A DNA stretch of 64,000 nucleotides, taken from Blautia sp. SC05B48. GTDB lineage: Bacteria > Bacillota > Clostridia > Lachnospirales > Lachnospiraceae. Both the position numbers and the translations under genes were made by a program. Under the pieces are notes generated by a model. The model had not been told where the DNA came from, searched no databases, and worked only from the letters and a program-made list of their open reading frames with translations. Below are positions 40,947 through 57,921 of this stretch, piece after piece. The stretch lies in contig NZ_CP040518.1 of NCBI RefSeq assembly GCF_005848555.1, positions 2,355,001 through 2,419,000 on the forward strand. The letters are read 5' to 3'. Numbering within the stretch: position 1 is the first letter of the stretch; each line of letters begins with the position of its first letter.

Positions 40947-40951
40947 TCACG
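40947..40951. repeat. Target site duplication, left copy
   Basis: TCACG directly before the TGT of the element; the same five bases follow the ACA at the other end (57917-57921). A five-base duplication is the Tn7-family hallmark. Confidence 0.9.
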
Positions 40952-41226: not shown

Positions 41227-41235
41227 TAGAGAAAT

Positions 41236-41367
41236 TTCCCAAGTTCATTTTTGGGAAGCTCAAAATCCTTGAAAAATGGCACTTTTCTACAAATCCATTT
41301 CCCGAAAACAACTCCCAAATTCATTTTTGGGACTCCAAATCTTACTTTTGGGAAAATTTTTGGGAAC
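41236..41367 (+). promoter_or_regulatory. TTTTGGGA repeat cluster upstream of tnsA
   Basis: Two inverted repeats, TTCCCAA-N7-TTTGGGAA (41236-41257) and TCCCAAA-N6-TTTGGGA (41313-41332), plus two direct TTTTGGGA words (41345-41367), all within 160 bases before the tnsA start. They are candidate operator or transposase-binding sites for autoregulation of the tns operon. No clear -35/-10 pair is visible. Confidence 0.5.
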
Positions 41368-41395
41368 TAAGTAAAATCGGGAAAGGTGGGAGAAA

Positions 41396-41740
41396 ATGCG
41401 GAAAAAATCATTCAAAGGACGTTGCGAAAAACGTATGCTTTCCAAGTGCAGCAGCATATGTCGTACTTATGATCCAATCCAAACTAGCTATGCGGAAATC
41501 CTTGAAAACGATCCCGACATAGTAGAAATTCAATGTAATGTCATTTTGGAAGATTTAGAAGACGGAGTGTACATGTCTGACTTCCTATGTACAAAAACCA
41601 ATAACGAAAAAATGGTAAGAGAGTGTGTGCAAAGAAAACACTTAATGAAGCCATTAACAGTGAAATTACTGGATATATCAAGAGACTATTGGTTAGAACA
41701 GGGTATTGAGGATTGGGGGTTAGTAATCAATGAAGAATAA
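41396..41740 (+). CDS. tnsA: TnsA-like endonuclease subunit (minimal)
   Basis: Partner of TnsB that cuts the 5' ends of the transposon in Tn7-type cut-and-paste. Only 114 residues, against about 270 for Tn7 TnsA, so only the PD-(D/E)XK core remains and the C-terminal winged helix that contacts TnsC is missing. Candidate active-site residues are Glu34 (SYAEILENDPDI), Asp62 (YMSDF) and Glu76 in VRECVQRK; the third position is E-C-V rather than (Q/E)-x-K, with a lysine five residues later. The ATG follows GGTGGGAG. The end overlaps tnsB by 11 bases. Confidence 0.8.
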   Translation: MRKKSFKGRCEKRMLSKCSSICRTYDPIQTSYAEILENDPDIVEIQCNVILEDLEDGVYMSDFLCTKTNNEKMVRECVQRKHLMKPLTVKLLDISRDYWLEQGIEDWGLVINEE

Positions 41741-43547
41741 TTGCCTTTTAAGAAACGACAACAACATCATAAGAATACTGGATCAGCAGCCAGATAAAAA
41801 ACTGATAATTGACTGCATAAAACAGACAATGCCAAAATGGGTAAAAACCGAAAACATCAGCTCATTTTTGCTTTGTACAGAACAAGAATTACTCAGTATC
41901 ACAAATAAAAATATCAAATCTATGGAATCGTTTGATGCGGATAGTCGAAAATTCATTCATGCGCATTTTTCTTTGATTGCCGGAATTCTGCCATTCATTG
42001 CAGATAACGCAAAGAGAAATCAGATGATTGAGAATATTTCTGAAGAAATGCATGTAAGCAAACAAACGATACGTCATTATTTATGTCTGTATTTAATATA
42101 CCAGGACATATCTGTATTAGCACCCAAACAGAAAAAAGAAAAAGAGCTTTCCAAAGATGAGAAAAACATGAGGTGGGCACTTAACAAATTCTTCTATACT
42201 AGAAATAAAAATAGCTTACAGACAGCATATACCCTAATGCTGAAGCAGAAGTATTGTGAGGCGAATGGAGAACTGCTGCCAGAATATCCGACCTTCAATC
42301 AATTCAGATATTTTTACAGAAAAACAAAAAGTATGCAGACCTATTATATTTCAAGGGATGGGCTGAAAAGCTATCAAAGGAACAACCGCCCATTAACCGG
42401 CGATGGTGTACAGCAGTTTGCGCCGAATGTCGGAGTGGGTATGTTGGATGCAACCATTTGTGACATTTATCTTGTGGATGATGCCGGAAATCTTGTAGGA
42501 AGACCAGTGTTTACAACTTGCATAGATGCTTATAGCAGCTTGTGTTGCGGTTATTCATTGACATGGGAAGGTGGCATGTACAGTTTAAGAAATCTGATGA
42601 TAAATGTTGTCACAGACAAGGTGGAATGGTGCAAAAAACATGGAATCATCATAGATAAAAACGAGTGGAATAATAGCCAACTTCCGGGTGTATTGGTTAC
42701 GGATATGGGATCGGAATATAAATCAGAGAACTTTGAACAATTGGCAGAGTTGGGAGTTACAATAACGAATCTTCCACCATACCGACCAGAATTAAAAGGA
42801 TCAGTGGAGAAATTCTTTGATTTGGTGCAAGGATATTATAAAAAGCATCTCAAAGGAAAAGGCGTTATAAACCCGGATTTCAGGGAAAGAGGATCGCACG
42901 ATTATAGAAAAGATGCATGTTTGACTATAAAAGATTTTGAGCGTGTAATATTGCGTTGCATCATCTTTTACAATTCCAAACGTATTATAGAGAATTTCCC
43001 ATATACAGATCAGATGATTGAAGAAAATATATTGCCGTATGCGAATCGTATATTTGAATGGGGGAAAAATCAACCTGGTGCAAATATGATTTCCGTTAAA
43101 AAGAACGAGGTTATTTATTCTCTGCTGCCTAGAACAATCGGTAAGTTTACCAGGTACGGTCTGAAGGTCAATAAAATGAGATATCATTGTGAAGGATATA
43201 CAGAAGAATATTTGAGCGGTGGCGAAATCAATGTAGCATATAATCCTGATGATGTAACAACAGTGTGGGCATTGATTGGCGGTCAGTATGTGACGTTTGA
43301 CCTTGTAGAAAGGCGATATAACGGCAAAAATATAGAAGAAGCACAAATACTCAGGGGCAGTCAGAAAACGCTTATATCGGGCGAAAATAGAAAGAGTACG
43401 CAAGCCCAGATTGACCTTGCACGCTATATAGAAACCATTGCAAATAATGTGTGCTATAAGTCAGACGTAAAAGTGAAGGATGTTCGCCAAACACGAAAAT
43501 ATGAGACACAGAGAGCGCATATAAACTTTGTAAAGGACGGTGAATAA
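41730..43547 (+). CDS. tnsB: TnsB-like DDE transposase
   Basis: RNase H-fold transposase that binds the ends and cuts and joins the 3' strands. 605 residues. The catalytic triad is D240 (GMLDATICD), D325 (VTDMGSEYKS) and E360 (GSVEKFFD), giving the DD35E spacing of the Tn7/Mu/TniA group; an N-terminal helix-turn-helix region includes MHVSKQTIRHYLCLY (about residue 110), and a beta-barrel domain follows the catalytic core. It overlaps tnsA, and a single base separates it from tnsC. Confidence 0.92.
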   Translation: MKNNCLLRNDNNIIRILDQQPDKKLIIDCIKQTMPKWVKTENISSFLLCTEQELLSITNKNIKSMESFDADSRKFIHAHFSLIAGILPFIADNAKRNQMIENISEEMHVSKQTIRHYLCLYLIYQDISVLAPKQKKEKELSKDEKNMRWALNKFFYTRNKNSLQTAYTLMLKQKYCEANGELLPEYPTFNQFRYFYRKTKSMQTYYISRDGLKSYQRNNRPLTGDGVQQFAPNVGVGMLDATICDIYLVDDAGNLVGRPVFTTCIDAYSSLCCGYSLTWEGGMYSLRNLMINVVTDKVEWCKKHGIIIDKNEWNNSQLPGVLVTDMGSEYKSENFEQLAELGVTITNLPPYRPELKGSVEKFFDLVQGYYKKHLKGKGVINPDFRERGSHDYRKDACLTIKDFERVILRCIIFYNSKRIIENFPYTDQMIEENILPYANRIFEWGKNQPGANMISVKKNEVIYSLLPRTIGKFTRYGLKVNKMRYHCEGYTEEYLSGGEINVAYNPDDVTTVWALIGGQYVTFDLVERRYNGKNIEEAQILRGSQKTLISGENRKSTQAQIDLARYIETIANNVCYKSDVKVKDVRQTRKYETQRAHINFVKDGE

Positions 43548-43548
43548 G

Positions 43549-44793
43549 ATGAGAAAAATTGAAGATATCACAGACAATTTACCGCCGATGTTATCGGGAA
43601 AAGAGCTAATATCCGCTTTAAGTGTTCTGCCAGAGTATAATCCAGAGATTGTAAATGCAAGTGCAGCAGAGCGGTTAATGGCACTATCTGATATATATAG
43701 AATCTATGTTCCGTCAAAGATGTCGCAGGAAATATACAGTAAATTGTACCTTGCTTTAATACGATCACTGCAGAAAAAATGCACAAGTGCCGTTATGCAA
43801 CAGCAAAGAGAAAATTTCAAGGCAATGCAGCATAAATCCTATAACGGTGGGATTATCGGCGGTTCAGATTCATTTTCGATTATTGGAAGTTCCGGGATAG
43901 GGAAAAGTGCATCTGTTTTCCGGGCGATTCAGGTAACGACAGATAGCGAAGTAATAGAAACGGAAAATCCATATGCAAAGATTATTCCTGTTTTGGTCGT
44001 GCAAACTCCGTTTGATGCATCCACAAAAGGGTTAATGCTGGAAATTTTGAGAAGAGTTGATGAGATTCTGGGATCGAAATACTATGAAAACGCACATAGA
44101 AAGAAATCAACAACAGATACTTTGATTGGTTGTGTGAGCCAGATTGCGTTGAATAATATCGGTTTATTGATACTTGATGAAATACAGAATGTATGCAATT
44201 CAAAAAATGGAAGAAATTTGGTTGGAAGTATTACACAGTTAGTCAATAATTCCGGCATTAGTATTTGTTTTGTCGGCACGCCGGAATGTAAAGAGTTCTT
44301 TTCTAAGGCGATGCATCTTGCTAGAAGAACAATGGGGCTGCAATATGGCTCTATGGAATATGGAATAGAGTTTATTGCATTCTGTAAGATAATCTTTCAG
44401 TATCAGTACATGGAAAGACATGTAGAAATCACAGATAAGATTATTGAATGGCTGTATGAACATTCAAACGGCAATGTATCTATGGTGGTAGCGATTTTGC
44501 ATGATGCACAGGAAATCGGCATTCTTGCAAGTGAGAAAGAGTTGACATTGGATTTATTGGAAAAGGCATATAACAATCGTATGGAGCTACTGCATGATTA
44601 TGTAGAATTCGCAACGATACAGAAGCCTCAGAAAACAACCAGAAAGAAAAAGAATAAGCAACAATCAAACGGCGATTTCTCCGTAAACAATAACATCAAA
44701 ATCGCAGATCTTGTTAAAGAAGCAAAAGAGAGTGGAGCAGATATAGTTGAACTGCTAAAGAAAAATTTGACAGTTGTGGAGGTGTCCGTATGA
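43549..44793 (+). CDS. tnsC: TnsC-like AAA+ transposition regulator
   Basis: ATPase that joins the target selector to the TnsAB transposase. 414 residues: Walker A GSSGIGKS at 113-120, Walker B GLLILDEIQN near 205, sensor SICFVGTPE near 242, and a basic KKKNKQQ linker before the C-terminal tail. I use the ATG at 43549; a GTG three codons upstream overlaps tnsB. The stop overlaps the tniQ start (ATGA). Confidence 0.92.
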   Translation: MRKIEDITDNLPPMLSGKELISALSVLPEYNPEIVNASAAERLMALSDIYRIYVPSKMSQEIYSKLYLALIRSLQKKCTSAVMQQQRENFKAMQHKSYNGGIIGGSDSFSIIGSSGIGKSASVFRAIQVTTDSEVIETENPYAKIIPVLVVQTPFDASTKGLMLEILRRVDEILGSKYYENAHRKKSTTDTLIGCVSQIALNNIGLLILDEIQNVCNSKNGRNLVGSITQLVNNSGISICFVGTPECKEFFSKAMHLARRTMGLQYGSMEYGIEFIAFCKIIFQYQYMERHVEITDKIIEWLYEHSNGNVSMVVAILHDAQEIGILASEKELTLDLLEKAYNNRMELLHDYVEFATIQKPQKTTRKKKNKQQSNGDFSVNNNIKIADLVKEAKESGADIVELLKKNLTVVEVSV

Positions 44794-46420
44794 TCTTATA
44801 TTTGCCGGAAATATATGAAGACGAAACAATGTTCAGTTATCTTTCAAGGGCATATGAAAAAGGCGGTTATATATCACAGATTCAGGCGTTGGGAGAATTT
44901 CTAAAAATCCGAATGAGAGAAGACTGGAATTTGTATTTTGCAATAATCTGTCTACAGAGATTATTGATTATCTGACAAAAAATTGTAAGTGGGAAACCTT
45001 TTTACGGAATCATACGTTGTGTAATTATTATGGGCGATACTTAAAAATTGCAAAAAGAAGGGAAGCAATGCAAGCACTTACGCTTCTAAAGGGGAATTAT
45101 GTTAATTTATTTTCGATTACCCCTATTCGGGACAGAACGGAATATTTGAAGTATTGTCCGATGTGTGTCAAGGAGCATAGAGAAAAATATGGAGAGACAT
45201 ACTGGAATCGGATTCATCAAGTGCCGGAAATCAAAGTATGTCCAAAACATAAATGCAGATTACTTAATAGTACGGTTATATATGATAGGCATAAAGTGTC
45301 TGGTTTTGTAACGGCTGAATCTGAAATCACAAATTTAGAATCAGAGAAAGGAACAGAATTAGAATCAAAACTTGCAGAGTATATTGAGGCAATGGTTCGC
45401 ACACCTGTAAAAATATATGCTAATTTGCAGCCGGGCGAATTTCTTGTGTCGCAAATGAATAATACGCCGTATTTATCGAATAGAGGGCAAGTTATAAATA
45501 TAACGATTCTATATGAAAAGATGATGGAATTTTATGAAAGTCTGGATAACGGGATTTCTATGAAGTGGCAGATTTCAAAGGTGTTACATGGAGAGAGAAT
45601 AAATCCGTATGAGATAATTCAAATAGGAGTATTTCTGGGCATTCCGGTAAAAGAGCTAATGGAATGCAGATTGCCATTTAAAAAGCCGGAAGAGGATTTT
45701 GACGATAGAGTTATTGAAATGCTTCGTAGTGATATAAGCGCATATCAAATATCAAGAGATTTAGGGGTGTCTAATGCACTTATCAATTTAATTAGGAGCA
45801 AACACGGAGTTCCGAATTATAAAGATGATAGATATGTCACAAACAAACGGAACAACAAAGAACAGAAAGTAACTGAATTAAGAAAAATATGGATCAAGAC
45901 AATGGCACAATATCCAGGATATACATATACACAAATATGTAATATGTCAGAATACAAATCAGAGTTACACTGGTTGAGAAGGAATGATTATGAATGGACG
46001 GAGAGATTTTATCCGAAAGCAAAAGAGAGTCGGGTAAAAATCGAACGGATTAAAAAATTGGATAATGAGTATTATCCCAAAATGGAAACTATCATTTCTG
46101 AATATAGGGAAAAGGATGGAGAGATGCCAAAGCGGATCACGTTAGGAGCAATAAATAGGGCAGCAGGGTTGAATAATCGGGATTTATATAACATGAAAAA
46201 ATGCAGAAAAATAGTTGAAAAGTATGAAGAAACTCAAGAAGGATTTTGGGCGAGAAAAATATTCTGGGCAATTTCTATTATTGAAAAAGAGGGAAAGGCG
46301 TTGACTTGGAATCATATACATAAAAAAACACATATAAGTGCATCAAATTTTCAAGCTCATGATAAATATTTCAGAGAAAAATTAGGTGATGAAGTTATTG
46401 ACGCAATCAGTCCGAGGTAG
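44790..46420 (+). CDS. tnsD: TniQ/TnsD-family target selector, interrupted by a -1 frameshift
   Basis: DNA-binding subunit that picks the insertion site. Read through, it is about 543 residues: a TniQ start (LPEIYEDETMFSYLSRAYE), the zinc finger YCPMCVKEH...VCPKHKCRL (CxxC...CxxH), then helix-turn-helix segments such as AYQISRDLGVSNALINLIR. The first 61 codons lie in one frame and stop at 44975; the rest is open in the -1 frame. Joining them at CTA-AAA-AAT (44901-44908) gives FLKNPNERRLEFVF; the run has five As where six are needed. It may be a mutation, a sequencing slip or programmed frameshifting on A-AAA. By analogy with Tn7 TnsD, it probably recognises the gpmI 3' end. Confidence 0.85.
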
Positions 46421-46480
46421 AGAAATATTTTAAAAAGTATCAAAACAGAAGAGAATCATAGTATAGCTTCTGTTATCCTG

Positions 46481-46489
46481 TGCTATAAT
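46481..46489 (+). promoter_or_regulatory. Extended -10 promoter for the DUF4238 gene
   Basis: TGCTATAAT, a TGn-TATAAT extended -10 element, about 60 bases before the start codon and without a good -35 box. Confidence 0.55.
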
Positions 46490-46546
46490 AAAACAATAGT
46501 TACCAGCACGACAAAGAATTTTGCCAAATGGCATAGGAGGGATTGG

Positions 46547-47650
46547 ATGAAAGCACATAAAGTTCCAGCAACATATTTTTCTTCATGGAAAACGCCGGGA
46601 ACAAAACACAGTTTTTATGTTTTTTATAAATCTGATGTAAATAAAAAAGGAAATAGTAAAAGTTACAAAGATGTTGATAACATAACTCAGGAGCACGCCT
46701 ACTTTATGGAAGAAGATTTCTATTATTTAGATATAAAAAAAGTTCCTGGATTATTGTATAAACTATCAGATGAAATCAATGATTTTTTGCAAGAGCGAGA
46801 TTATAAGATCGAATGCCCGGATTTTCTGGCAGAAGATAAGGAAGCAGAGGCAGAGTACCCAATTATTGAAATAAAAAATTATGATGACCTTATGCGTTGT
46901 TGGAGAGATATAGATAAATGGATGATTAAAGATACGGATGGTAAAGCTATTGAAAATGATATGTTTTCAAGGGACTTACATGATTATCTATTTGAAAAAA
47001 TTGGGATAATTGTTGAAGAAACGTATTTTGCAAATAATTTAGAACCCAAATGGAATAACATCAAGAAAGAAATAGAAAAACAAAGAAAATTAGGTGATGA
47101 TTTTTGCTTAAGTAATAAAGCGGATTTCCTAGAATTTTTTGTTATTCAATATCTTAGAGTGAATGATTTTATGACGGATGATATTGAACCTGTAGTAAAC
47201 ATGTTTAAAGAGGTATTTTCTTCTATGGGGTTTGAGAATCCTGAATTAGAGGAAATGAAAGAAGATGGGTTGTTAGCGTCGGAATCCTTTTTTTATGGAA
47301 CATTATTGGATGTTGCAAGGGGAGAGAAACAACGACTTCAGAAGTATATAGATTCGATAGAACAAAATTATGTTATGGATTTGCTTAAAGCAGAAGACGG
47401 CGTTTCTTTTATAACATCTACATCACCGTGTGTAGTTATGAAAATGATTGGAAAGTTTAAAGTTGAAATGGTTTTTCCAGTATCGCCAAAATATTGTATT
47501 CGATTTATCGGAAAGTCCAGTGTGAATAATAGAAGTGGAAAATTTTTTGAAGCTACATCGGATGAGGTTAAATGTATAAATCGAAAAATTATTTCTGAAT
47601 CAAAAAATATTGTCATAAGTGAATCAGAAAATATATCTGATAGAATCTAA
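46547..47650 (+). CDS. DUF4238 domain protein
   Basis: 367-residue soluble protein, the first cargo gene after the tns genes. The N-terminus MKAHKVPATYFSSWKTPG matches the DUF4238 pattern (HxVP..YL..W), and FITSTSPCVVMK near residue 288 and FPVSPKYCIRF near 308 fit its C-terminal part. The biochemical function of DUF4238 is not established. TAGGAGGG precedes the ATG. It has its own promoter, and its AT-rich codon use matches the rest of the element. Confidence 0.75.
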   Translation: MKAHKVPATYFSSWKTPGTKHSFYVFYKSDVNKKGNSKSYKDVDNITQEHAYFMEEDFYYLDIKKVPGLLYKLSDEINDFLQERDYKIECPDFLAEDKEAEAEYPIIEIKNYDDLMRCWRDIDKWMIKDTDGKAIENDMFSRDLHDYLFEKIGIIVEETYFANNLEPKWNNIKKEIEKQRKLGDDFCLSNKADFLEFFVIQYLRVNDFMTDDIEPVVNMFKEVFSSMGFENPELEEMKEDGLLASESFFYGTLLDVARGEKQRLQKYIDSIEQNYVMDLLKAEDGVSFITSTSPCVVMKMIGKFKVEMVFPVSPKYCIRFIGKSSVNNRSGKFFEATSDEVKCINRKIISESKNIVISESENISDRI

Positions 47651-47720
47651 AGCGAGAACATTTTTAGGTGGTTTAAGCGTCTAAGTGATAAGGGCTGAAT
47701 TTGACTAAGTTAATAAAGGT

Positions 47721-47760
47721 AAAAATAAGGCTGCAGATTTTGTTCTACAGCCTTATTAAA
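47721..47760. terminator. Bidirectional terminator between DUF4238 and HTH genes
   Basis: AATAAGGCTG and CAGCCTTATT with a 14-base loop, flanked by A and T runs, between convergent genes. Confidence 0.75.
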
Positions 47761-47771
47761 GTGAAGTATAA

Positions 47772-48296
47772 TCATTGACTTACATGTGAGTTTGTAACGG
47801 AGATAAGAACATTCAACTCTTTTTGTAATCTGTGTTGCAGTAAAATTTCGGCACTTTTTGATAAAGTGGGTTGTTTCATTAGCTGGTCGGCAGCAGCTTG
47901 TGCGTTAGTACCATAGATAATCGTTTCACCGAAATTCGGACTGGGGATTTTTATAACATCCTCTTCAGCTTTTATTGCAATTTGCTCTAATTTATTGTTT
48001 CGTTCTTCACTGGCAGGAAAGTACACCTTCCGATTGTGAGGAATGAATTCTACGGAATATCCTAAAAGTTCTGCAATTTCGACTACCTCTGAAAATTTTA
48101 TTGTTTCTCTGGCAAGTTTATTTGTTATGTTTTGGGCTGTAGTAGGAGTATCTGGGTGGTTTGTATTCATCTTTTCCACAACCTCTTTTAAAGTATATCC
48201 ATTCATGGCAAGGAAAGATTTGAAAAAGCGGGAGGGAAAGAGATGTGTATAGTGTATGGATATTGCAGGGTAAGCCGAGCTAAACAGAAGGTTCAA
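47772..48296 (-). CDS. Helix-turn-helix DNA-binding protein
   Basis: Up to 174 residues. The HTH lies in FKSFLAMNGYTLKEVVEKMN through AQNITNKLARETIKFSEVVEIAELLGYSVEFI, a Cro/CI-like arrangement related to DUF6471-type proteins. The start is uncertain: the ATG at 48296 keeps the first helix but overlaps the resolvase gene by 54 bases, while the ATG at 48203 would cut off helix one. Neither has a strong ribosome site. It probably regulates the divergent resolvase or the element; no other function is apparent. Confidence 0.65.
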   Translation of the reverse strand: MNLLFSSAYPAISIHYTHLFPSRFFKSFLAMNGYTLKEVVEKMNTNHPDTPTTAQNITNKLARETIKFSEVVEIAELLGYSVEFIPHNRKVYFPASEERNNKLEQIAIKAEEDVIKIPSPNFGETIIYGTNAQAAADQLMKQPTLSKSAEILLQHRLQKELNVLISVTNSHVSQ

Positions 48297-48920
48297 AGAC
48301 AGATAGATAATATTAAAGCATATAATCCTGATGCTGTAATTATAGCAGAAGCATTTACGGGAACTAAGATGGATCGTCCAAAATGGAGTAATCTTTATAG
48401 AAAAGTAAAGTGCAATGATACTATTATATTTGATGAAGTAAGTCGAATGTCAAGAGACGCAGAAGAAGGATTCAAAGTATATAAAGAATTGTATGAACGT
48501 GGAGTAAACCTAATATTTTTGAAAGAATCAACATTAAATACAGAAAATTTCCGAAAAACAACGCAGATTGCAATGACTGATACCGATGTAGATTTGATAT
48601 TAGAAGGCGTTAATAAATATTTGATGAAACTTGCTGAAAATCAAATCAAATCGGCGTTTGAGACTGCACAGCACGAAGTGGATTTTTTACACAAGCGAAC
48701 GTCAGAAGGTGTGCAACGTGCAATTGCAGAAGGAAAGAGAGTTGGAATTGAAAAAGGACGAAAGCTCGTAACCAAGAAAAGTATTGAAAAGAAAGAAATC
48801 ATAAGAAAACATTGTAGGGATTTTGGTGGATCACTTAATGACAATGAGTGCATGGTAATGACGGGGTTGTCAAGAAATACCTATTACAAATACAAAAGGG
48901 AATTGAAAGGGCAAGGATAA
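48243..48920 (+). CDS. Serine recombinase (resolvase type)
   Basis: 225 residues with the resolvase N-terminal domain: nucleophile Ser in YGYCRVSRAKQ (about residue 10), QRQID, FDEVSRMSRDAEEG (about 60-75) with conserved Arg residues, then the long E helix and a C-terminal HTH (NECMVMTGLSRNTYYKYKREL). Too short for a large serine integrase, so resolution of cointegrates or multimers, or inversion, is the likely role. GGGAGGG lies upstream. The start region overlaps the 5' end of the divergent HTH gene. Confidence 0.88.
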   Translation: MCIVYGYCRVSRAKQKVQRQIDNIKAYNPDAVIIAEAFTGTKMDRPKWSNLYRKVKCNDTIIFDEVSRMSRDAEEGFKVYKELYERGVNLIFLKESTLNTENFRKTTQIAMTDTDVDLILEGVNKYLMKLAENQIKSAFETAQHEVDFLHKRTSEGVQRAIAEGKRVGIEKGRKLVTKKSIEKKEIIRKHCRDFGGSLNDNECMVMTGLSRNTYYKYKRELKGQG

Positions 48921-48938
48921 AACAACCTTGCCTTTTCT
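48910..48938 (+). terminator. Intrinsic terminator overlapping the resolvase stop
   Basis: GGCAAGG and CCTTGCC with a nine-base loop, followed by TTTTCT; the left arm contains the last codons. Confidence 0.7.
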
Positions 48939-49049
48939 ATCTCTTATATCGGGGGATATAATTACATTTTTGCAGTGCATCTAGGCGTGAACAATCTGCT
49001 ACGAGGTCTATCTTAGTCTACTATATAAAATTTTGATCTCGAACAATTT

Positions 49050-49898
49050 TTATTCTTGAATTGCAGTTACAAGTCCATCTTCCAGATATATGTATTTAGT
49101 TTTAGAGGATGAGCGATATACCCATTGCTCTCTGACACCGTATTTGGTTGTGGTTTTATTTATATCGGAAGGATCACCCCAAGTGGAATTTTTTACTTCG
49201 GCAGCGGTCATTCCGATTTCGGGATCACGCTTTGGCTCTTCTGTGGTAGTCGCTTTTTCATTGGATTCATTATTTTTAGGCTTAGATTTGTCAAACTGTT
49301 CTTGTTTCTCTGTATTCCAAGCTATACCGGCTCCGTTTCTAAGTAATCTGAAGGCATAATCGCTTTTTCCTTGATAATTGGTTATACCGTCTGACACGGG
49401 AATAGCTTCACCGAATAGCTCTTCTAATTTATTACTTATATTAGAATACTCATCGCCCTGAATATATTCGTTATCATCAAGAGAAAGAGTAATATTAGTG
49501 ATTGTTGAATTATCCCATCCGAGGAAAATGGAAACAGTTCCAGTATTGTTATATAAAGAACTTTTTCCAACACCTTGAATAAATGATTTAGAATCCCATT
49601 GGGTTAAATCTAGTCCGATTTCAGAAATATTTTGACCAATGTATTTCGTACATTCAATAAAATCATCTGGTAAATCAGGAATGGTGAGTTCTACTTCGGG
49701 ATCGGCAGTAGGTTCAGAAGATGCAATCATTTCATTTTTACTTTCGGTGGCAGTTGTGTCGGCTGTAGATTCTGAAAAAGTTTCGCTTACAGAAGTAGCA
49801 ACATCTGTTGGTGTTGAATCTGCATCAGAAGTGCCACATCCAGACAAAGAAATGATTATACAAAATATAAAAAAATAAAGAAAAGATTTTTTGTGCAT
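49050..49898 (-). CDS. Lipoprotein with a C-terminal BamE-like domain
   Basis: 282 residues. A signal peptide ends in the lipobox LSGC (Cys at about residue 21), followed by a Ser/Thr/Glu-rich linker to about residue 70, a middle domain, and a last 55 residues resembling the small BamE/SmpA-type fold: PEIGMTAAEVKNSTWGDP...EQWVYRSSSKTKYIYLEDG. It would be anchored on the outside of the membrane. Function unknown; similar lipoproteins are common in Firmicutes. It lies downstream of the HNH gene on the same strand, 76 bases away. Confidence 0.75.
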   Translation of the reverse strand: MHKKSFLYFFIFCIIISLSGCGTSDADSTPTDVATSVSETFSESTADTTATESKNEMIASSEPTADPEVELTIPDLPDDFIECTKYIGQNISEIGLDLTQWDSKSFIQGVGKSSLYNNTGTVSIFLGWDNSTITNITLSLDDNEYIQGDEYSNISNKLEELFGEAIPVSDGITNYQGKSDYAFRLLRNGAGIAWNTEKQEQFDKSKPKNNESNEKATTTEEPKRDPEIGMTAAEVKNSTWGDPSDINKTTTKYGVREQWVYRSSSKTKYIYLEDGLVTAIQE

Positions 49899-49974
49899 GT
49901 TATTATTTACCTCATTAGTATATACTCGTGTTTGTACGGATTACTTTCTAAGTTATAAGAAAAAAGCGTACATT

Positions 49975-51399
49975 TTATAAATTATTGTATTTAGATAAAT
50001 GCAGATCGGTTATAATCGCAAGTTTATCTGAATCATTAGCAAGATATAAGCAATCATTTTCTTTTTGCAGCTTATAATTTCCACCTTTATTCCAATGTAA
50101 ATATCTATGATGATTCGGACACACAACAATCATGTTTCCTGGACGGTCTAAAGAGCCTTCTTCGTCCACACCTTCGGAATTAGGGATTATGTGATGAACT
50201 TCTACATAATATCCGTCTAAGGTTTCTATGTTAAAGTAATTATTTTTTTGACAGAGCTGGCAGCGAAAACCATATTCTTTTTTTAGGCGTGAAATGATTT
50301 GCTGATTTCTTGTGTAGTGTTCTTGTGTAACTGTTGCCTTATCACGTTCTTTCTCGTAGATCTGCGATATTTCTTCAAATATGTCTGGCTTTTTAAGTGT
50401 ATGACGATTTTGCTGGAACTGAAATTCAGGATATTCAAAAGCTCTTACCCATATTTCGTAAGATTTTTTGATTCGATTTATTTTGTCTCTCAGGTTACGA
50501 GGGGATAAATCGGGATCTTTTAGCAACAGCTTTGTAGTTAAATCATTATATAAAAAAGATTCTTTATCGTTTACAGAGTGAATTAAATGGAATAAACCAC
50601 TATCACGGAGTTTATCAGCAGTTAAGGTCTTCTTTTTTCCGCTCTTTTTTTCATATTCGTTGCAAAATTCTTTTATCTTATGTATTACATGTCCAAAACG
50701 TAAGGGTTCATTATAAATATTATTTTTTACTGTACCAATTCTTCGACGAATAACATAATCATTATCACAAAGTGGTTCATGGCAGACTTGACCATTACTT
50801 TTGGAAAGAATATATTCTGTTTGCTCAGAACAATATTTACATAATTCTAATACTTTGTCGTTAGCAGAATATTTTAAACCTGGATATATTGCACTAAATA
50901 TAATGTGGTTTTCATAATCAACCATTTCTTTTTTTAATTGTACAATTTCTTCATTTTCTAATCCTAAATAACACAGACGTATGATTAACTCTTTGGATGC
51001 CGCAACTGTTTTTTCGGAGCTATCAATTCCCTCGTAAACAATATTGAGCATGTCATCTAATTCATTTCCATTTAATAAATATTTTTCACGGAATATAGTT
51101 CTTTTATCTATGTCATAAGAATGAATCCGATCTATATAATTGATGCTAAAAATGGTTTTTCCATTGGAAATACACCAATTTATATATGTCTTTAATAAAC
51201 TTTTATCAGAAGCAATATCGTTTGTACCTGTTTTCTGGGCAAAAAAATCAATGAGTTCTTCTTTATTAAAGTCACAGATATCCTTTTGATAATAATTCTC
51301 TAAGGATTCAGAAGCATTGAAAATTCTTTGCGTTGACCTTTGAGAATTAAAATTTGATATTTCTGATAAATATAGTTCTTTTTGAAATTGATTATACAT
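49975..51399 (-). CDS. MrpR/integrase-like protein fused to an HNH endonuclease
   Basis: 474 residues. Residues 1 to about 200 match the pattern of the SPbeta repressor MrpR (an integrase fold without recombinase activity): a QRSTQRIFNASESLENYYQKD core-binding part, TYINWCISNGKT, and a region aligned with the recombinase core. The C-terminal 110 residues are an HNH nuclease: zinc-type CQLCQKN near residue 378, VEVHHIIPNSEG near 398, and the GNMIVVCPNHHRYLHW finish near 430. The join of these two parts is unusual. It may be a DNA-recognising nuclease with a defence or element-maintenance role; that is inference. The start lies behind AGGGAA on the minus strand. Confidence 0.75.
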   Translation of the reverse strand: MYNQFQKELYLSEISNFNSQRSTQRIFNASESLENYYQKDICDFNKEELIDFFAQKTGTNDIASDKSLLKTYINWCISNGKTIFSINYIDRIHSYDIDKRTIFREKYLLNGNELDDMLNIVYEGIDSSEKTVAASKELIIRLCYLGLENEEIVQLKKEMVDYENHIIFSAIYPGLKYSANDKVLELCKYCSEQTEYILSKSNGQVCHEPLCDNDYVIRRRIGTVKNNIYNEPLRFGHVIHKIKEFCNEYEKKSGKKKTLTADKLRDSGLFHLIHSVNDKESFLYNDLTTKLLLKDPDLSPRNLRDKINRIKKSYEIWVRAFEYPEFQFQQNRHTLKKPDIFEEISQIYEKERDKATVTQEHYTRNQQIISRLKKEYGFRCQLCQKNNYFNIETLDGYYVEVHHIIPNSEGVDEEGSLDRPGNMIVVCPNHHRYLHWNKGGNYKLQKENDCLYLANDSDKLAIITDLHLSKYNNL

Positions 51400-51559
51400 T
51401 TCCCTGTTTTCCCCTACATATTTGTGCTGATAGCTTAGTAATCTATCTTGCCTAAAAAGTGCGTATGTTAGAACAATGGTGCTTATGTCTGTACTATTTA
51501 ATTCTAATCTGGTGATAAACTTAAGTCAACATGTTAGTCCAAGATCTTTGAACTAAATA

Positions 51560-51577
51560 ATAAATATTAGTATTTAT
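51560..51577. promoter_or_regulatory. Palindromic operator candidate
   Basis: ATAAATA-TTAG-TATTTAT is a perfect seven-base inverted repeat 18 bases before the XRE start codon and just before its AAAGGAGG ribosome site, well placed for autorepression. Confidence 0.5.
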
Positions 51578-51595
51578 CGGAAAGGAGGTAAGAGG

Positions 51596-51904
51596 ATGAC
51601 TTTTAATCAATGTGGCTTTCAGGAGCGCATCAGATTATTAAGAAAGCAAAAAGGCTACACACAGCAGCAGTTGGCTGATATATTCCATCTTTCCAAATCG
51701 AATATAAATTACTATGAAAAATCGACAAGAGCACCTTCGCCAGATACGTTTATAAAATATGCGGATGAATTTAATGTGACAATAGATTTTTTATTTGGTA
51801 GGGAAAAGTCACCAGACAATATGGTTGATGTAAGCGGATTAACAAAGCAGGAAATTTCTATAATTGAAAATATGATTGATACATTGCGGAAAAAGAATAA
51901 GTAA
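51596..51904 (+). CDS. XRE-family transcriptional regulator
   Basis: 102 residues: a standard Cro/CI HTH (RIRLLRKQKGYTQQQLADIFHLSKSNINYYEKSTRAPSPDTFIKYADEFNVTIDFLFGR, residues about 10-68) and a short helical dimerisation tail. AAAGGAGG lies upstream. It is divergent from the MrpR-HNH gene, and could control it and itself. A GAGTCTG/CAGGCTC hairpin with a T run (51911-51937) ends its transcript. Confidence 0.9.
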   Translation: MTFNQCGFQERIRLLRKQKGYTQQQLADIFHLSKSNINYYEKSTRAPSPDTFIKYADEFNVTIDFLFGREKSPDNMVDVSGLTKQEISIIENMIDTLRKKNK

Positions 51905-51950
51905 ATGATTAGAGTCTGTTTGTTCAGGCTCTTTTTTTATGGGAGAAGAT

Positions 51951-52306
51951 ATGATTGTAAGACAGGATTACGAAATTATATTAAAAAAAATTACTATTAT
52001 ATAGAAACGAAGGAAAGTAATGCTTGCCCCGATTGTAATGAAAAAATGAAAGTGCGAGATAGCAGGAAAAGAATAATTTTAGATGAATGCGGAGAAAAAT
52101 ATATTTTTAGTTTGAGGAGATTTTAATGTAGTACATGCAAAAGTATTCACTTAGAATTACCAGATTGCATAATTCCACGCAAAAGATATTCAAGAAATGC
52201 TATAAACATAGTTGTAAATGAAAAATGCGATTATTATATTATGGATCAAAGCACAATCTATCGTTGGACACACCCGTTCTGCAATGACAAGGAGATAGCA
52301 GATTGA
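51951..52306 (+). pseudogene. Broken DUF6431 gene (frameshift plus in-frame stop)
   Basis: A GGGAGAAG site precedes ATG at 51951, whose frame begins MIVRQDYEIILKK. A run of eight As at about 51984 is followed by a change of frame, after which the zinc-ribbon text continues: SNACPDCNEKMKVRDSRKR, then SLRRF. A TAA at 52124-52126 interrupts it, and the same frame resumes with CSTCKSIHLELPDCIIPRKRYSR, ending at TGA 52304-52306. CxxC...CxxC...HLELPDCIIP matches DUF6431, found in short proteins often linked to transposase genes. Two independent lesions make it a pseudogene; the remainder of the family's length is also missing. Confidence 0.7.
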
Positions 52307-52333
52307 TATGATATGAACCTGGGAGGTGTCATT

Positions 52334-52810
52334 GTGAAAAGAAAAAAATCTATCCTTATTATAGTTTGTTTTTTGTTACTACTGCTTTTTGCATTCATTT
52401 TTTTCTTTGGTCGGCAAGGAAAAATAGATAATCCTTTATTGCCAATTGATGAATTGGCAGAAAATTGGAAGGGAAATCAAGACTTACCGAGTAACGGGGA
52501 AAATAAAGAAATTGAAATTCCTGGATTTAAAACCCTTGTATTTTATGCAAATCAAACAACTCAAAAAGTTAACTTGTACAATCCAGAGAATAATGATTGC
52601 TTATTCAAGCTGAAACTTTATGCAGATGATAGCCAAATATGGGAGTCCGGTTACATTAAACCAAATGATGGTTATTATGATATTGAACTAAATGAGCCGT
52701 TGAATATTGGAGAATATGCCGGAAAACTCCTGTACCAATGTTACAAAGAGGATGGAACGCAGCTTAATAGCGCAGTAGTAAGTTTTAAATTAACAGTGAA
52801 GGAACAATAG
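52334..52810 (+). CDS. Membrane-anchored extracytoplasmic protein, unknown function
   Basis: 158 residues from a GTG at 52334, six bases after GGGAGGT; an in-frame ATG at 52313 is upstream of that site. A basic start (VKRKKS) and TM segment (about 6-25) anchor a beta-rich domain with IEIPGFKTLVFYANQTTQKVNLYNPE and a C-terminal VVSFKLTVKEQ strand, an immunoglobulin-like pattern common in small exported Firmicutes proteins. One base separates its stop from the next gene, so the two form a pair. I do not recognise a characterised homologue. Confidence 0.7.
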   Translation: MKRKKSILIIVCFLLLLLFAFIFFFGRQGKIDNPLLPIDELAENWKGNQDLPSNGENKEIEIPGFKTLVFYANQTTQKVNLYNPENNDCLFKLKLYADDSQIWESGYIKPNDGYYDIELNEPLNIGEYAGKLLYQCYKEDGTQLNSAVVSFKLTVKEQ

Positions 52811-52811
52811 C

Positions 52812-53297
52812 ATGAAAAAAGTTTTTACGGCAATACTTTGTATGGGTATGCTAGTGGTAGGATCGACTACAGCATATGCACAGGACATAGGTTCTTTTGG
52901 AGATGGAGGATTTGGCGATACAGCAACCTCTACAATGACTTACGATATCGACAGCACATATATAGTATCTATTCCAGCTACTATCAACATGAATCAAGAA
53001 AATAAGCTCACATCAAATATGATGGATATAAAATCAAATGAGCTTGTAGAAGTGTATACAGATCCAACAGTTCAAATGACGAATAAAAATAATATGGAAG
53101 CAGCACCGATGGATATGGAAATTGTAACGTCTAATACAGATCTTACTTATAACGGAAGTCCTATAGTTGCACAGTTTATGCAAGGAGCTATGGAAAGCAG
53201 CATGATATTCTGGGGAAAACGTCCAGATGCGCAGGGATCAGCAGGACATTATGAAGGAACTTGTGAATTCCATATTCGTATTCGAGAGATGAACTAA
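52812..53297 (+). CDS. Secreted protein, unknown function
   Basis: 161 residues with a Sec signal peptide (MKKVFTAILCMGMLVVGSTTAYA, cleavage likely after AYA at about 23), a short Gly-rich segment (GSFGDGGFGD) and a beta-rich domain containing STYIVSIPATINMNQ, a phrase seen in many Lachnospiraceae surface proteins of unknown role. AAGGAAC lies upstream, and it is coupled to the preceding anchored protein; they may assemble together at the surface. No sortase motif. Confidence 0.7.
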   Translation: MKKVFTAILCMGMLVVGSTTAYAQDIGSFGDGGFGDTATSTMTYDIDSTYIVSIPATINMNQENKLTSNMMDIKSNELVEVYTDPTVQMTNKNNMEAAPMDMEIVTSNTDLTYNGSPIVAQFMQGAMESSMIFWGKRPDAQGSAGHYEGTCEFHIRIREMN

Positions 53298-53324
53298 TTA
53301 TAAATAAATAGCATAATACAAGGG

Positions 53325-53353
53325 AGGGCGTGCCAGTGTTGGTATGCCCTTTT
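53325..53353 (+). terminator. Intrinsic terminator after the secreted protein gene
   Basis: AGGGCGTGCC and GGTATGCCCT pair with two G-U pairs, followed by TTTT. Confidence 0.7.
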
Positions 53354-53483
53354 AATGTTAGGAGCGAAAGGATAGGTATATTGAATGCTATAGCAAGGAT
53401 TTAGTAGAAAGGTATAGTTATTTATGTTACTATAAAATATATGCTAAAAACGAGAGTTTTGTATTTAAAAGGAAGTGACTAAT

Positions 53484-56400
53484 ATGTGGGAAATTAACTG
53501 GAAAAAGTTTGAAATAAAGAATCCAAAAGCAACAGAAGCATTTGAAACATTGTGTTATTTTTTGTTTTGCCGTAAATTTAATATTACAGAAGGAATTCGG
53601 ACAGACTTTAATCAAGTTGGTTTGGAAACAGAGCCGGTGAAAGATTCAAATGGAGAATACTGGGGCTTTCAATCAAAATTTTTTGATAAAAAAATAAATT
53701 ATAATAATATTGCTTCATCTATAGGGAAGGCATTGGAACACTATTCGGATTTGAAGCATATAATTATTTATTTAAATCAAGAGGCGCAAACATCCTGTAA
53801 AAATGCACAAGCTATAGAAAAAAGATGTTTGAAAGCTGGTGTATCTGTGGAATGGTTTTTGCCAGAGAATTTTAAAATCAGTTTAAATAATGTGAAAAAT
53901 CGAGATTTAGCAGAATTTTATTTTGGTGAGACAGATGCAATACGAGTATTATCTGATAGTAAAGATATAAGACTTAATACATTGTTGCAGTCTAAAGAGT
54001 ATGTTGAATTAAAATTGCAAAAGCAAACTAAAAGTATAAAAATAAGCGATTACAGCAATGAAATAATGAAGTCAGCATATAAATTGCACCTTTTTTCTGG
54101 GGCAGCAGGATCGGGAAAAAGTGTTTGTATGCGAAAATTATTTAATATTTATGGTGGATTTGAATGTGAAAAAGAAGAGGAACAGCAAAAAGTAATAAAT
54201 GAAACGGGTGCATTATGTATATTTGTTAGCCTTAACAAAACGTCGTTGGACTCACTAGAGAATATTATTTATGCATATAAAAATTTCTATTCACTTAATA
54301 ATCAATATAATAAATTTATATATTTGCTTGATGGATTAGATGAAGTTCCAAACAGTTCCATAACGGGAACAATATTATTTATCGAGGAACTTCTGGAAAA
54401 AGAATCAACCAAAAAGGTTATTATATCTAGCAGATTGTCGAGTAATAATAAGATTGTGTTAAAAACGACATTTTCGGATGTGTCAGAATATACAATTGAA
54501 AATCTGGAACAGAAAGAAATTGAGGAATATTTTAAAAATAAGAACGATGAAAAAAAGACAGAGAGATTGAAGGAGTTACATAAAAAAATTCCTCATTTGT
54601 ACGACAATGTAACCGATATATTGACGCTTGCGATGCTTTGGAAATATATTTTTCAAATAACAGATGCGAATGTTTTTCCCGAACTGATGGAATTAAGTGT
54701 GAATGCTACATTAGATGATATTCATCATAGAAAAAATTTAGATACATTAAATTTACCAAATCCAAAAGAAGCAGAAATTATAGAATTAAATAAAAAGTTG
54801 GCATTTTATTTGTTTGAGAACGATCAATTTAGCTTTAATCAACAGCAATTGAATAAAGTAATAGGTGAAACATTTCCAAGGTGTGATTATAAATCAGTAA
54901 ATGAAATTGCTGGATATTTGGCAGATAATTTTTTTGATTCGTCAATTACAGATAACATGCAGACATATGCATATCGTCATAGACGATTTTTGGAGTATTT
55001 CACTCTTTTGTCTATTGAAAATAAAATACAGAAGAATATGAATTACTTGCGAGAAAAAAAGATTATAATAAATCAGGATTTATTTGATAATATGTTGATC
55101 CCATATTTGCACAGTAAGGCGATAAAAAATCAAGATTTACCCTTATCTTTTGAAGCAGGCTTATTTAATGTGTATATGGGAAATGATAAGGCATGGGGAG
55201 TAGAAAAGAATTTTTACTATTGGTCGATTTGGATTGTTTATGCGATTGCTGCATTACCAGATCACATTTTTCAAAATTTAGTAGAAGATAGTAGTCTTCC
55301 GATTTCTAATTTCTTTACTTTGATGCCAGAAAAGTTAATCTCTATCGCCAGAGAAAATGATAAACCAAAATACAATTCAGATTTCAACCAATATTATTTG
55401 AATTTTGTGCTTCTTATTTCATTACTACATAAGTTCCAAAAGAATGAATGGTTGAATAAAATGCTGGCGAAATATGATGAGTTTAAAGAAATTTGTATGG
55501 AAAAAGGAATTCTCTTCAACACTACATCAAATAAAGAAAATAATTTAGTGTGGGAAAGTATTTTTTATATAGAAACCGTTATCTATAGCGAGAGTATAGA
55601 TAAATATGCAGATTTCTTTATTGAGAATGTCAATGGGGAAATAGATTCAATCATGAAAGAATATGTAGGTACAGAAATACATGCTGCAAGAGGATTCTAT
55701 TATAATTTATTGCTTTTTCATCCAAAGAAATGTACGGAGATTATTTCACGAATGAGTATGAATCAAATAAGTTTATTCATATTTGCAGCAGTGAAAGCAG
55801 AGTGCTTACCTATAATTTATGAAAATTCTGAAATTGAAGAAGCTCTTACTAAAAAATTGAATTGCGTTATAGAAGGATCAGGGTTAGGAACAACATTATG
55901 TTTAAGCATGAAAAAAATGCTAGGAGGTACATTATCAGAGATTGAAAAAACGGAAGTGTCTTCTTATTTAAAAGAAAATCCTTTTAGGGAAACTTCCGTC
56001 TTTTGGAAGGAATGTTCTGATGCGACTGGATTTATTTTATCAATATTTGATGATCTAATAGATATTGTTCCGATCGATTCGAGTATGAGACAATATATTG
56101 AGGCGTATAAGAAATACATGAGTCTGTTGGAAAATAAGATTACAATTTCAGGATTTGTTAGTGCGGTAAGAGATTATTTGAATAGAAAATCGAATGCGAT
56201 TTATTGTATACGGATTTTATTAGGCAAAGCGTTAGCTGTATGCTCAGACGATGATCTTCTGATCAAAGGAACAATGGATTATTTAAATTATAATATGAAA
56301 AACGGTGGATTATATATAGTTTATCATATGATGAAGTTACATAATCTGAACAGATTTAAAAAATTAGCAACTAATTCTGTACTAAAGGTGTTGAATGATC

Positions 56401-57578
56401 CTGAAAACTATCGGGATATAGGCTACGAAAGCACAAGTGATGTAATGTTTATGTTAGCATTTATTATTTCTGAAATTGATGAGAAAGTTTCCTGTGAAAT
56501 ATTATTGCAAGGAATTTGCAATGGAATGCTACGTATGAATGAAAGAAAAGATACTATTGGAGATTACAAACTATTAGAAGGATTGGAGGAACTTCTTAAA
56601 AATAACTGGCTTTCGGAACAACAATTGAAAGAGTATTTAGATCGAATTGTTTTAATTGCAAATAAAATGGATATATATCATATAGATAATGATGTTCATG
56701 GACAACTTATAGAAATGCTCTTAAAATATGATTTTGAAATGGCTGAATATTATTATAGAGAAATAGAAGGAAAGATAGGGATTTATAATGAAATCCATTT
56801 TCGATTTGCTGAAGGATTGGCATATAGAGGTAGAAAAATAGAAGATATTGAGAATGTTCTCTATAATATGGTAGATTCTTATGACAATTATTTTGGTAAA
56901 TTAGGAAAAGAAGGAAATGACTACAAAATAAGAATATATCTTTATCTTGCAACGTGTGATTTTTATTCGGAAAATGAAAAAAATGAATGTTTTAAAAAGG
57001 TGTGTGAAGAATTAGAACATTTAGAGGAGAAAGGATGGGAGAAAGAACTAGGTTCTGCGGAATATGAAATTTATGTAGATTTGTGTAATAAATATGATAT
57101 GGAAAATGATGTACACAAGGCTAAAGAATATAGTTTTGATTCTGTAGAAAAAAGAAATGAACTGAACAGCTTGAATGAGATCAAAAAGGTAAAATCCATT
57201 GATGAATTAAAAGCGTTTATAGAAAAAATGAATCAAGAAATCAGAGTTGACAATTTAGAAAGCAATCAGATGCTTGTACAAAAATGCATTGATTTAAACG
57301 GAAATATAAATGATATTTTGAACCTGATGAAAAAGCAATATTATCCTAGTTCTATAAATGGTTCAGCAAATGGCATGAATTTTTGGATGACGGTTGTGGC
57401 AGCATTACAAAATCCGAAAGCAAAAGGAAGTATGATGAGATATCTTCTGGAGCAGGGAGGTGGTCATGATGGCTTTAGTGAACTAATTAAGGTATTTGGA
57501 GAAATGAAAAATAAGAACATATGCATAAGAACATTTAATATAATGCTTAATTGTGTGGAATTTTTGCTGTATGATTAA
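53484..57578 (+). CDS. Nuclease-NACHT STAND protein, probable antiphage effector
   Basis: 1364 residues. Residues 1-150: restriction-endonuclease-like domain with Glu21 (AFETLCYFLF), GLETEP (Glu48/Glu50) and GFQSK (Gln63-x-Lys65), the E...E...QxK form of PD-(D/E)XK seen on Avs and bNACHT proteins. Residues about 200-350: NACHT-type ATPase with Walker A GAAGSGKS at 206-213, Walker B FIYLLDGLDEVP at 278-289 and sensor IISSR at 313-317. The remaining 900 or so residues are leucine/aromatic-rich and look helical, the probable ligand-sensing region. Known relatives sense phage proteins, oligomerise and degrade DNA. The ATG at 53484 follows AAAGGAAG. It is monocistronic and the last cargo gene before the right end. 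Function is inferred from architecture. Confidence 0.85.
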   Translation: MWEINWKKFEIKNPKATEAFETLCYFLFCRKFNITEGIRTDFNQVGLETEPVKDSNGEYWGFQSKFFDKKINYNNIASSIGKALEHYSDLKHIIIYLNQEAQTSCKNAQAIEKRCLKAGVSVEWFLPENFKISLNNVKNRDLAEFYFGETDAIRVLSDSKDIRLNTLLQSKEYVELKLQKQTKSIKISDYSNEIMKSAYKLHLFSGAAGSGKSVCMRKLFNIYGGFECEKEEEQQKVINETGALCIFVSLNKTSLDSLENIIYAYKNFYSLNNQYNKFIYLLDGLDEVPNSSITGTILFIEELLEKESTKKVIISSRLSSNNKIVLKTTFSDVSEYTIENLEQKEIEEYFKNKNDEKKTERLKELHKKIPHLYDNVTDILTLAMLWKYIFQITDANVFPELMELSVNATLDDIHHRKNLDTLNLPNPKEAEIIELNKKLAFYLFENDQFSFNQQQLNKVIGETFPRCDYKSVNEIAGYLADNFFDSSITDNMQTYAYRHRRFLEYFTLLSIENKIQKNMNYLREKKIIINQDLFDNMLIPYLHSKAIKNQDLPLSFEAGLFNVYMGNDKAWGVEKNFYYWSIWIVYAIAALPDHIFQNLVEDSSLPISNFFTLMPEKLISIARENDKPKYNSDFNQYYLNFVLLISLLHKFQKNEWLNKMLAKYDEFKEICMEKGILFNTTSNKENNLVWESIFYIETVIYSESIDKYADFFIENVNGEIDSIMKEYVGTEIHAARGFYYNLLLFHPKKCTEIISRMSMNQISLFIFAAVKAECLPIIYENSEIEEALTKKLNCVIEGSGLGTTLCLSMKKMLGGTLSEIEKTEVSSYLKENPFRETSVFWKECSDATGFILSIFDDLIDIVPIDSSMRQYIEAYKKYMSLLENKITISGFVSAVRDYLNRKSNAIYCIRILLGKALAVCSDDDLLIKGTMDYLNYNMKNGGLYIVYHMMKLHNLNRFKKLATNSVLKVLNDPENYRDIGYESTSDVMFMLAFIISEIDEKVSCEILLQGICNGMLRMNERKDTIGDYKLLEGLEELLKNNWLSEQQLKEYLDRIVLIANKMDIYHIDNDVHGQLIEMLLKYDFEMAEYYYREIEGKIGIYNEIHFRFAEGLAYRGRKIEDIENVLYNMVDSYDNYFGKLGKEGNDYKIRIYLYLATCDFYSENEKNECFKKVCEELEHLEEKGWEKELGSAEYEIYVDLCNKYDMENDVHKAKEYSFDSVEKRNELNSLNEIKKVKSIDELKAFIEKMNQEIRVDNLESNQMLVQKCIDLNGNINDILNLMKKQYYPSSINGSANGMNFWMTVVAALQNPKAKGSMMRYLLEQGGGHDGFSELIKVFGEMKNKNICIRTFNIMLNCVEFLLYD

Positions 57579-57641
57579 AAGCGATAAAACATTGAAATTT
57601 GTATAAAAATTAGCTATAATATCATAGCAAGGTTTATACTA

Positions 57642-57916
57642 TGTAAAGGGCAAACTTCATTATCCTGAAAAAGGTAAAAATGATTAGCGTCCAGCTGAAA
57701 AAATTAAACCTTGAGATATGGGAATTTTACTCATATCCCAAGGTTTTTTAATTTTCCCACATAGTAAAAACCCCGAAAACACGGTGATTTTCAAATAAAA
57801 TATTGATTTTATTTAGTTTCCCGATTGCTGAAATCAGCAAAGGGAGCAGATTTGAGAAAAATGAATAAGGATAATTTGAATTGTCCTTTCGAGGATAGTC
57901 AACTTTTTCAAAAACA
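57642..57916 (+). repeat. 275-bp TGT...ACA end unit, right copy
   Basis: Same orientation and sequence as 40952-41226. Its ACA (57914-57916) is the outer right boundary of the element, followed by TCACG. It is preceded by TACTA, so it too lacks its own duplication. The stretch 57579-57641 before it shows no gene or terminator. Confidence 0.9.
57709..57749 (+). terminator. Intrinsic terminator inside the right end unit
   Basis: Second copy of the CCTTGAGATATG/CATATCCCAAGG hairpin with its T run; it would end transcription from the NACHT gene. Confidence 0.75.
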
Positions 57917-57921
57917 TCACG
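57917..57921. repeat. Target site duplication, right copy
   Basis: TCACG directly after the terminal ACA, matching 40947-40951. Confidence 0.9.

What the first reader, a model, noticed from the sequence alone, without database searches (positions are those of the whole stretch)
49975..51399. MrpR/integrase-like repressor domain fused to an HNH nuclease
The first 200 or so residues follow the pattern of SPbeta MrpR, a phage repressor built from an inactive tyrosine-recombinase fold; the last 110 form an intact-looking HNH nuclease. A sequence-specific DNA-recognition module linked to a nuclease could cut particular phage or competitor sites, or regulate the element. It is divergent from an XRE regulator with a palindromic operator candidate.
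Basis: inference. Interest (0 to 1): 0.6.

Follow-up and report, generated by a model that had tools for sequence, protein, structure and literature searches.

The report
Phage-repressor fold fused to HNH nuclease
A bacterial transposon carries a gene that joins the DNA-binding body of a phage repressor (a dead recombinase) to a DNA-cutting domain, and two related fusions with a different cutter turned up, which points to an aimed nuclease that attacks phages or other mobile DNA, though no activity has been shown.

Summary
Confirmed and extended. ORF 49975-51399 (-), 474 aa, is a full MrpR-type repressor: core-binding plus catalytic-fold domain, about residues 1-325, not only the first 200. 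It is fused to an intact-looking McrA-like HNH domain (about 363-468). Support: Pfam MrpR_N_CB 5.7e-16, phrog_5830 2.5e-29, an independently built MrpR profile matching both halves, and a predicted fold closest to solved MrpR/YopR and phi3T SroF. The recombinase site is dead by alignment (Tyr to Lys306, His to Asp262). The gene is cargo of a 16,965-bp Tn7-like transposon (40952-57916; duplication TCACG; empty site in a sister species) beside an Avs4-like defence gene. A sister copy of the transposon at the same site lacks it but keeps the XRE gene, so XRE is not a dedicated partner. No close relative was found in 85,000 species genomes or the viral set. Two other MrpR proteins carry a different predicted nuclease (NOV_C/DUF3883), one as Tn7-like cargo downstream of glmS; both reading frames are broken. 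Most likely: an anti-phage or anti-element nuclease aimed by a repressor fold, perhaps at repeated phage operators. Target and activity untested. New variant of a known kind.

The parts
49975..51399 (-). MrpR-HNH fusion gene, 474 aa
51148..51399 (-). MrpR core-binding (CB) domain, residues 1-84
   Evidence: PF22822 residues 1-77 E 5.7e-16; model pLDDT about 85
50425..51102 (-). recombinase-type catalytic-fold domain, recombinase-dead, about residues 100-325
   Evidence: phrog_5830 to residue 281; family profile 42 bits; VIA Z 19.1 to SroF over model 1-322; MrpR Tyr304 aligns with Lys306 and Asn254 with Asp262
49996..50313 (-). HNH nuclease domain, about residues 363-468; C380, C383, H402, H403, N422, C427, H430, H431, H435 present
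   Evidence: invariant with two plasmid HNH proteins
51534..51556 (.). imperfect palindrome TTAGTCCAA-N5-TTGAACTAA between the divergent genes; candidate operator
   Evidence: significance modest
51596..51904 (+). XRE/RstR-CapH-like repressor gene
   Evidence: HTH_3 1.8e-16, RstR 1.6e-17, under its cut-off, capH 7.6e-15; 45% identical homologue in sister element
40952..57916 (.). Tn7-like transposon carrying the gene; TGT...ACA ends
   Evidence: 5-bp duplication TCACG at 40947-40951 and 57917-57921; empty site in G004; GC 33% against 45% in flanks
41396..44793 (+). tnsA-like (41396-41740), tnsB-like (41730-43547), tnsC/tniB (43540-44793)
44790..46420 (+). tniQ/tnsD, split by a frameshift in this copy; intact 542 aa in the sister element
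48243..48920 (+). serine recombinase cargo
   Evidence: Resolvase 7.4e-22
53475..57578 (+). Avs4-like defence gene next to the fusion, N-terminal region match only
   Evidence: PADLOC Avs4 6.3e-36 residues 4-224; NCBIfam Avs4 7.1e-35, below its cut-off

Best explanation
A single-chain aimed nuclease that protects the host or its transposon from phages or rival mobile elements. The MrpR-type module (shown by sequence and predicted fold) has lost the recombinase active site and binds DNA at a specific sequence (inferred from MrpR). The attached HNH domain (intact by sequence) nicks or cuts the bound DNA (inferred). The likeliest targets are operator repeats of the kind that MrpR-type repressors bind in SPbeta-like phages and their relatives; such a site recurs in a phage genome and can be rare in the host, so no protecting methylase would be needed (inferred).
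For: MrpR homology over both domains; closest solved folds MrpR/YopR and DNA-bound SroF. MrpR binds a 15-bp repeated phage element and is recombinase-dead (PMC10516654). HNH motif residues all present. The gene is variable cargo of a Tn7-like transposon next to an Avs4-like defence gene. Two other MrpR proteins in genomes of the same phylum carry a different predicted nuclease, NOV_C/DUF3883, called a novel REase domain in PMC3710099 and found in the defence models PDC-S36 (1e-40) and PD-T4-1 (1.6e-15); one of them is Tn7-like cargo downstream of glmS, near an ABC-3C/Lamassu-like system. The three fusions lack the DGQHR (DndB-like) gene that directly precedes many phage MrpR genes (window gene order).
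Against: No activity, target or phenotype is known. No close relative exists to test for selection. The two NOV_C fusions are broken by frameshifts. The HNH half was not modelled with confidence. MrpR also binds other DNA weakly, so specificity of the fusion is not assured.
Confidence: 0.5

Rival explanations
1. Modification-dependent (type IV, McrA-like) restriction enzyme: the MrpR module reads modified or unusual DNA instead of an operator sequence and the HNH domain cuts it.
For: HNH domain nearest to EcoKMcrA and to the PADLOC type IV model; no methylase gene among the ORFs scanned in the element.
Against: No SRA, EVE, SBD or winged-helix reader domain was found in the protein; MrpR itself is a sequence-specific repressor.
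Confidence: 0.15
2. A transcriptional regulator of the transposon or of its cargo, with an HNH domain that is not used for cutting.
For: MrpR and SroF are repressors; the gene is divergent from an XRE regulator with palindromes between them.
Against: Metal-binding and catalytic HNH residues are all kept; the sister transposon does without the gene and keeps the XRE.
Confidence: 0.15
3. A homing-endonuclease-like gene that spreads itself by cutting an allelic site.
For: HNH plus DNA-binding domain is a common layout of homing endonucleases (general knowledge).
Against: It sits in a mobile transposon with an exact 5-bp duplication and in no interrupted gene; close relatives, expected for a spreading gene, were not found.
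Confidence: 0.08
4. Decaying cargo without present function.
For: tniQ in the same element is frameshifted; both NOV_C relatives have broken frames.
Against: The 474-codon frame is open, with start and both domains intact.
Confidence: 0.12

Closest known systems
MrpR (YopR) of Bacillus phage SPbeta, PDB 8A0A/8BJ6, and SroF of phage phi3T, PDB 9RD5/9RGL
   Same: Both domains homologous (MrpR about 25% identity), same predicted fold (Z 16.6-19.1); MrpR is recombinase-dead too
   Different: They are about 320-325 aa repressors without a nuclease, in phages, MrpR next to a DGQHR gene; here an HNH domain is added and the gene is Tn7-like cargo
EcoKMcrA and other McrA-like HNH type IV restriction enzymes
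   Same: C-terminal HNH domain behind a DNA-binding module, in one chain
   Different: Recognition module is an MrpR-type recombinase fold; HNH has CxxC...CxxH where McrA has CxxC...CxxC
MrpR-NOV_C (DUF3883) fusions in G787 and G224 (found here)
   Same: MrpR module plus C-terminal predicted nuclease; one in a Tn7-like element with other defence genes
   Different: Another, unrelated nuclease domain; frames interrupted
HNH proteins of Pontibacillus (WP_207530663.1) and Klebsiella (QXW42330.1) plasmids
   Same: Closest HNH subfamily by sequence (39% and 36%)
   Different: 630 and 726 aa proteins; no MrpR family was reported for their N-termini

Membership tests
MrpR family | Core-binding domain PF22822 | tested here: met
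   E 5.7e-16, 59.4 bits against cut-off 27
MrpR family | Catalytic-fold domain of MrpR (PF22823 or equivalent) | tested here: met
   PF22823 itself did not reach E 1, but phrog_5830 spans residues 1-281, the held-out family profile gives 42 bits on residues 91-345 and the model matches SroF/MrpR over 1-322
MrpR family | Loss of recombinase catalytic residues | tested here: met
   By alignment to Table 3 of PMC10516654: Tyr304 to Lys306, Asn254 (His in Cre) to Asp262, first Arg absent; one Arg (R265) lies near the second Arg position
MrpR family | Phage repressor that binds a repeated operator | not testable with these tools
   binding needs an experiment; the gene lies in a transposon, not a phage
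HNH nuclease superfamily | CxxC zinc ligands, HH-N-H motif | tested here: met
   C380, C383, H402, H403, N422, C427, H430, H431, H435
Type IV (McrA-like) restriction enzymes | HNH domain of the McrA kind | tested here: met
   PADLOC mREase_IV 1.7e-8, 6ghc 2.8e-7
Type IV (McrA-like) restriction enzymes | Reader domain for modified bases | tested here: not met
   no such domain among Pfam matches to E 1; residues 1-325 are MrpR-type
Classical restriction-modification system | Cognate DNA methyltransferase | tested here: not met
   no methyltransferase among the ORFs of the element that were scanned
Tn7-like transposon (the carrier) | TnsA, TnsB, TnsC, TniQ genes, TGT...ACA ends, 5-bp duplication | tested here: met
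   TnsA match (2.5e-4) is under Pfam's cut-off, tniQ is frameshifted

The most novel reading that the evidence does not exclude
A class of immune effectors in which a captured phage repressor, itself a dead recombinase, is turned against phages by fusing it to interchangeable nucleases (HNH, NOV_C): it cuts the phage's own operators, sites that cannot easily be mutated without losing lysogeny control. Tn7-like transposons spread them.
Probability: 0.25. Interest if true: 0.8.

Novelty: new variant of a known kind. Interest (0 to 1): 0.52.

Why it matters
Nucleases aimed by a fused DNA-reading domain are known, but none of the library models, papers or solved structures searched here shows one aimed by a recombinase-fold phage repressor. 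If it cuts operators, a phage would face a choice between losing its repressor sites and being cut. The recognition fold is that of Cre and lambda integrase, so it would also be a natural example of a recombinase body used to aim a nuclease.

Tried and rejected
Close relatives of the fusion: none in genome contigs, viral contigs, phages or plasmids; the transposon is absent from the plasmid set. A back-translated scan from an HNH alignment gave 591 pattern matches and no confirmed relative. An alignment of distant MrpR proteins was too diverse to scan with. First structure model was poor (pLDDT 50); the second, with more diverse rows, is good for about residues 1-220 only, and the HNH half is unmodelled. 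PF22822 matches in G175 and G1242 were set aside: the first is a plain XerD-like integrase, the second lies in rsmB/rlmN-like genes. Weak long-frame matches in L066, L068 and L069 are uvrB-like and ispH/rpsA-like proteins by eye, not fusions. An RNA gene in the 276-nt repeat: no Rfam family and no tRNA. No paper on SroF was held; no paper found describes MrpR-nuclease fusions. Four scans failed for wrong coordinates or frame.

Full report
What is there. The ORF at 49975-51399 (minus strand, 474 aa) is real. Its first part is an MrpR-type protein. Pfam MrpR_N_CB matches residues 1-77 at E 5.7e-16, and PHROG 5830 ('integrase') matches residues 1-281 at E 2.5e-29. The nearest phage proteins, at about 25% identity, include YopR/MrpR of SPbeta. 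To test the second domain apart from the first, I built a profile from 19 other MrpR proteins: it scores residues 1-90 at 59 bits and residues 91-345 at 42 bits, while the best of 1000 shuffles of that stretch scores 12.5. The MrpR part therefore covers both domains, about residues 1-325.

Structure. A first AlphaFold2 model with seven aligned rows was poor. A second with nine more diverse rows reached pLDDT around 80 for residues 1-220. Its best Foldseek matches are YopR/MrpR (8bj6, E 9.1e-12; 8a0a) and the phi3T repressor SroF bound to DNA (9rd5). VIA-align 2 gives Z 19.1 to 9rd5_H with 300 residues aligned, rmsd 8.4, model 1-322; the best recombinases outside this family stand near Z 12. 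The rmsd is large, probably because the two domains are set differently. The alignment rows were MrpR proteins, so this supports but does not independently prove the relation. The HNH half was not modelled with confidence.

Active sites. MrpR keeps only three of seven recombinase residues and has lost recombinase function (PMC10516654). Here the nucleophile position (MrpR Tyr304, 'MQDYIN') aligns with Lys306 ('LRDKIN'), Asn254 with Asp262, and the first arginine is missing. The protein is thus very likely recombinase-dead, by alignment only. The HNH domain in contrast keeps C380, C383, H402, H403, N422, C427, H430, H431 and H435, invariant with two plasmid HNH proteins. It matches HNH_2 and HNH, a type IV restriction model and EcoKMcrA.

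Carrier. The gene lies in a Tn7-like transposon, 40952-57916, inserted just behind a phosphoglycerate mutase gene (named from its sequence). The 5-bp duplication TCACG flanks it, and a sister species (G004) has the uninterrupted site, 98% identical over 1034 bases through the joint. GC is 33% inside against 45% outside. It holds tnsA-, tnsB-, tnsC- and tniQ-like genes; tniQ is frameshifted. Next to the fusion is a 1367-aa gene whose first 220 residues match Avs4. Another species (G023) has a sister copy at the same site, 79% identical over tnsA-tniQ, with other cargo: no MrpR match and no DNA similarity over the fusion or the Avs4-like gene, but a homologous XRE gene, 45% identical. So the fusion is exchangeable cargo and the XRE gene belongs to the element, not to the fusion alone.

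Relatives. No close relative was found in 85,000 species genomes or in the viral collection, nor one covering both parts in phage or plasmid records. PF22822 was searched in roughly 1,500 genomes of the phylum in overlapping draws. About 16 carry an MrpR-type gene by my reading; most are plain repressors, several in phage-like surroundings. Two others bear a C-terminal NOV_C (DUF3883) domain: G224 (E 1.8e-17; MrpR frame and NOV_C frame separated by a frameshift at a T5 run) and G787 (E 4e-10 when read through; frame broken at a TA repeat). NOV_C is called a novel REase domain in PMC3710099 and occurs in the defence models PDC-S36 and PD-T4-1. The G787 gene is the first gene behind tnsD of a Tn7-like element downstream of glmS, with an ABC-3C/Lamassu-like system further on; I did not determine that element's right end. 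Many phage MrpR genes directly follow a DGQHR gene; none of the three fusions does.

How it most likely works. Shown: the domain make-up, the dead recombinase site by alignment, the intact HNH motif, the mobile defence-type carrier, and the recurrence of MrpR plus nuclease. Inferred: binding to a defined site, cutting there, and protection against phages or other elements. Operators of SPbeta-like phages are the natural guess because MrpR binds a repeated 15-bp element, but no target was identified. Rivals are a type IV enzyme, a regulator with an unused HNH, a homing-type nuclease and decaying cargo; each is scored above.

Novelty. Fused reader-plus-HNH nucleases are a known kind (for example PMC11037411 and PMC7461809, listed); an MrpR-type reader appears new in the libraries and papers searched, which miss subscription literature. 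I rate it a new variant of a known kind. The interest rests on the unusual reader and its recurrence with another nuclease; it is limited by the lack of any functional evidence and of close relatives.

Noticed in passing
window 40952-41227 and 57642-57917: The Tn7-like element is bounded by two identical direct repeats of 276 nt, and each repeat itself runs from TGT to ACA, like an empty mini-element at each end. Recombination between them would delete all cargo and transposition genes and leave one unit.
   Followed up: partly
window 44790-46420: tniQ/tnsD is split by a frameshift here but intact (542 aa) in the sister element of G023, so this copy may no longer select its target.
   Followed up: yes
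L070 9870-10010 (G787) and L032 4170-4300 (G224): Both MrpR-NOV_C genes are out of frame at simple repeats (TA repeat; T5 run): phase variation, decay or sequencing error.
   Followed up: partly
window 53475-57578: Avs4-like 1367-aa NACHT-type protein: strong match only in the first 220 residues, far under the NCBIfam Avs4 cut-off; probably a divergent Avs relative.
   Followed up: no
L015, L017, L019, L029, L030, L053, L087: Phage MrpR genes often directly follow a DGQHR (DndB-like) gene, a pairing whose role is unknown to me.
   Followed up: partly
window 46547-47650: DUF4238 protein as transposon cargo (1.9e-14), no defence model matched.
   Followed up: no
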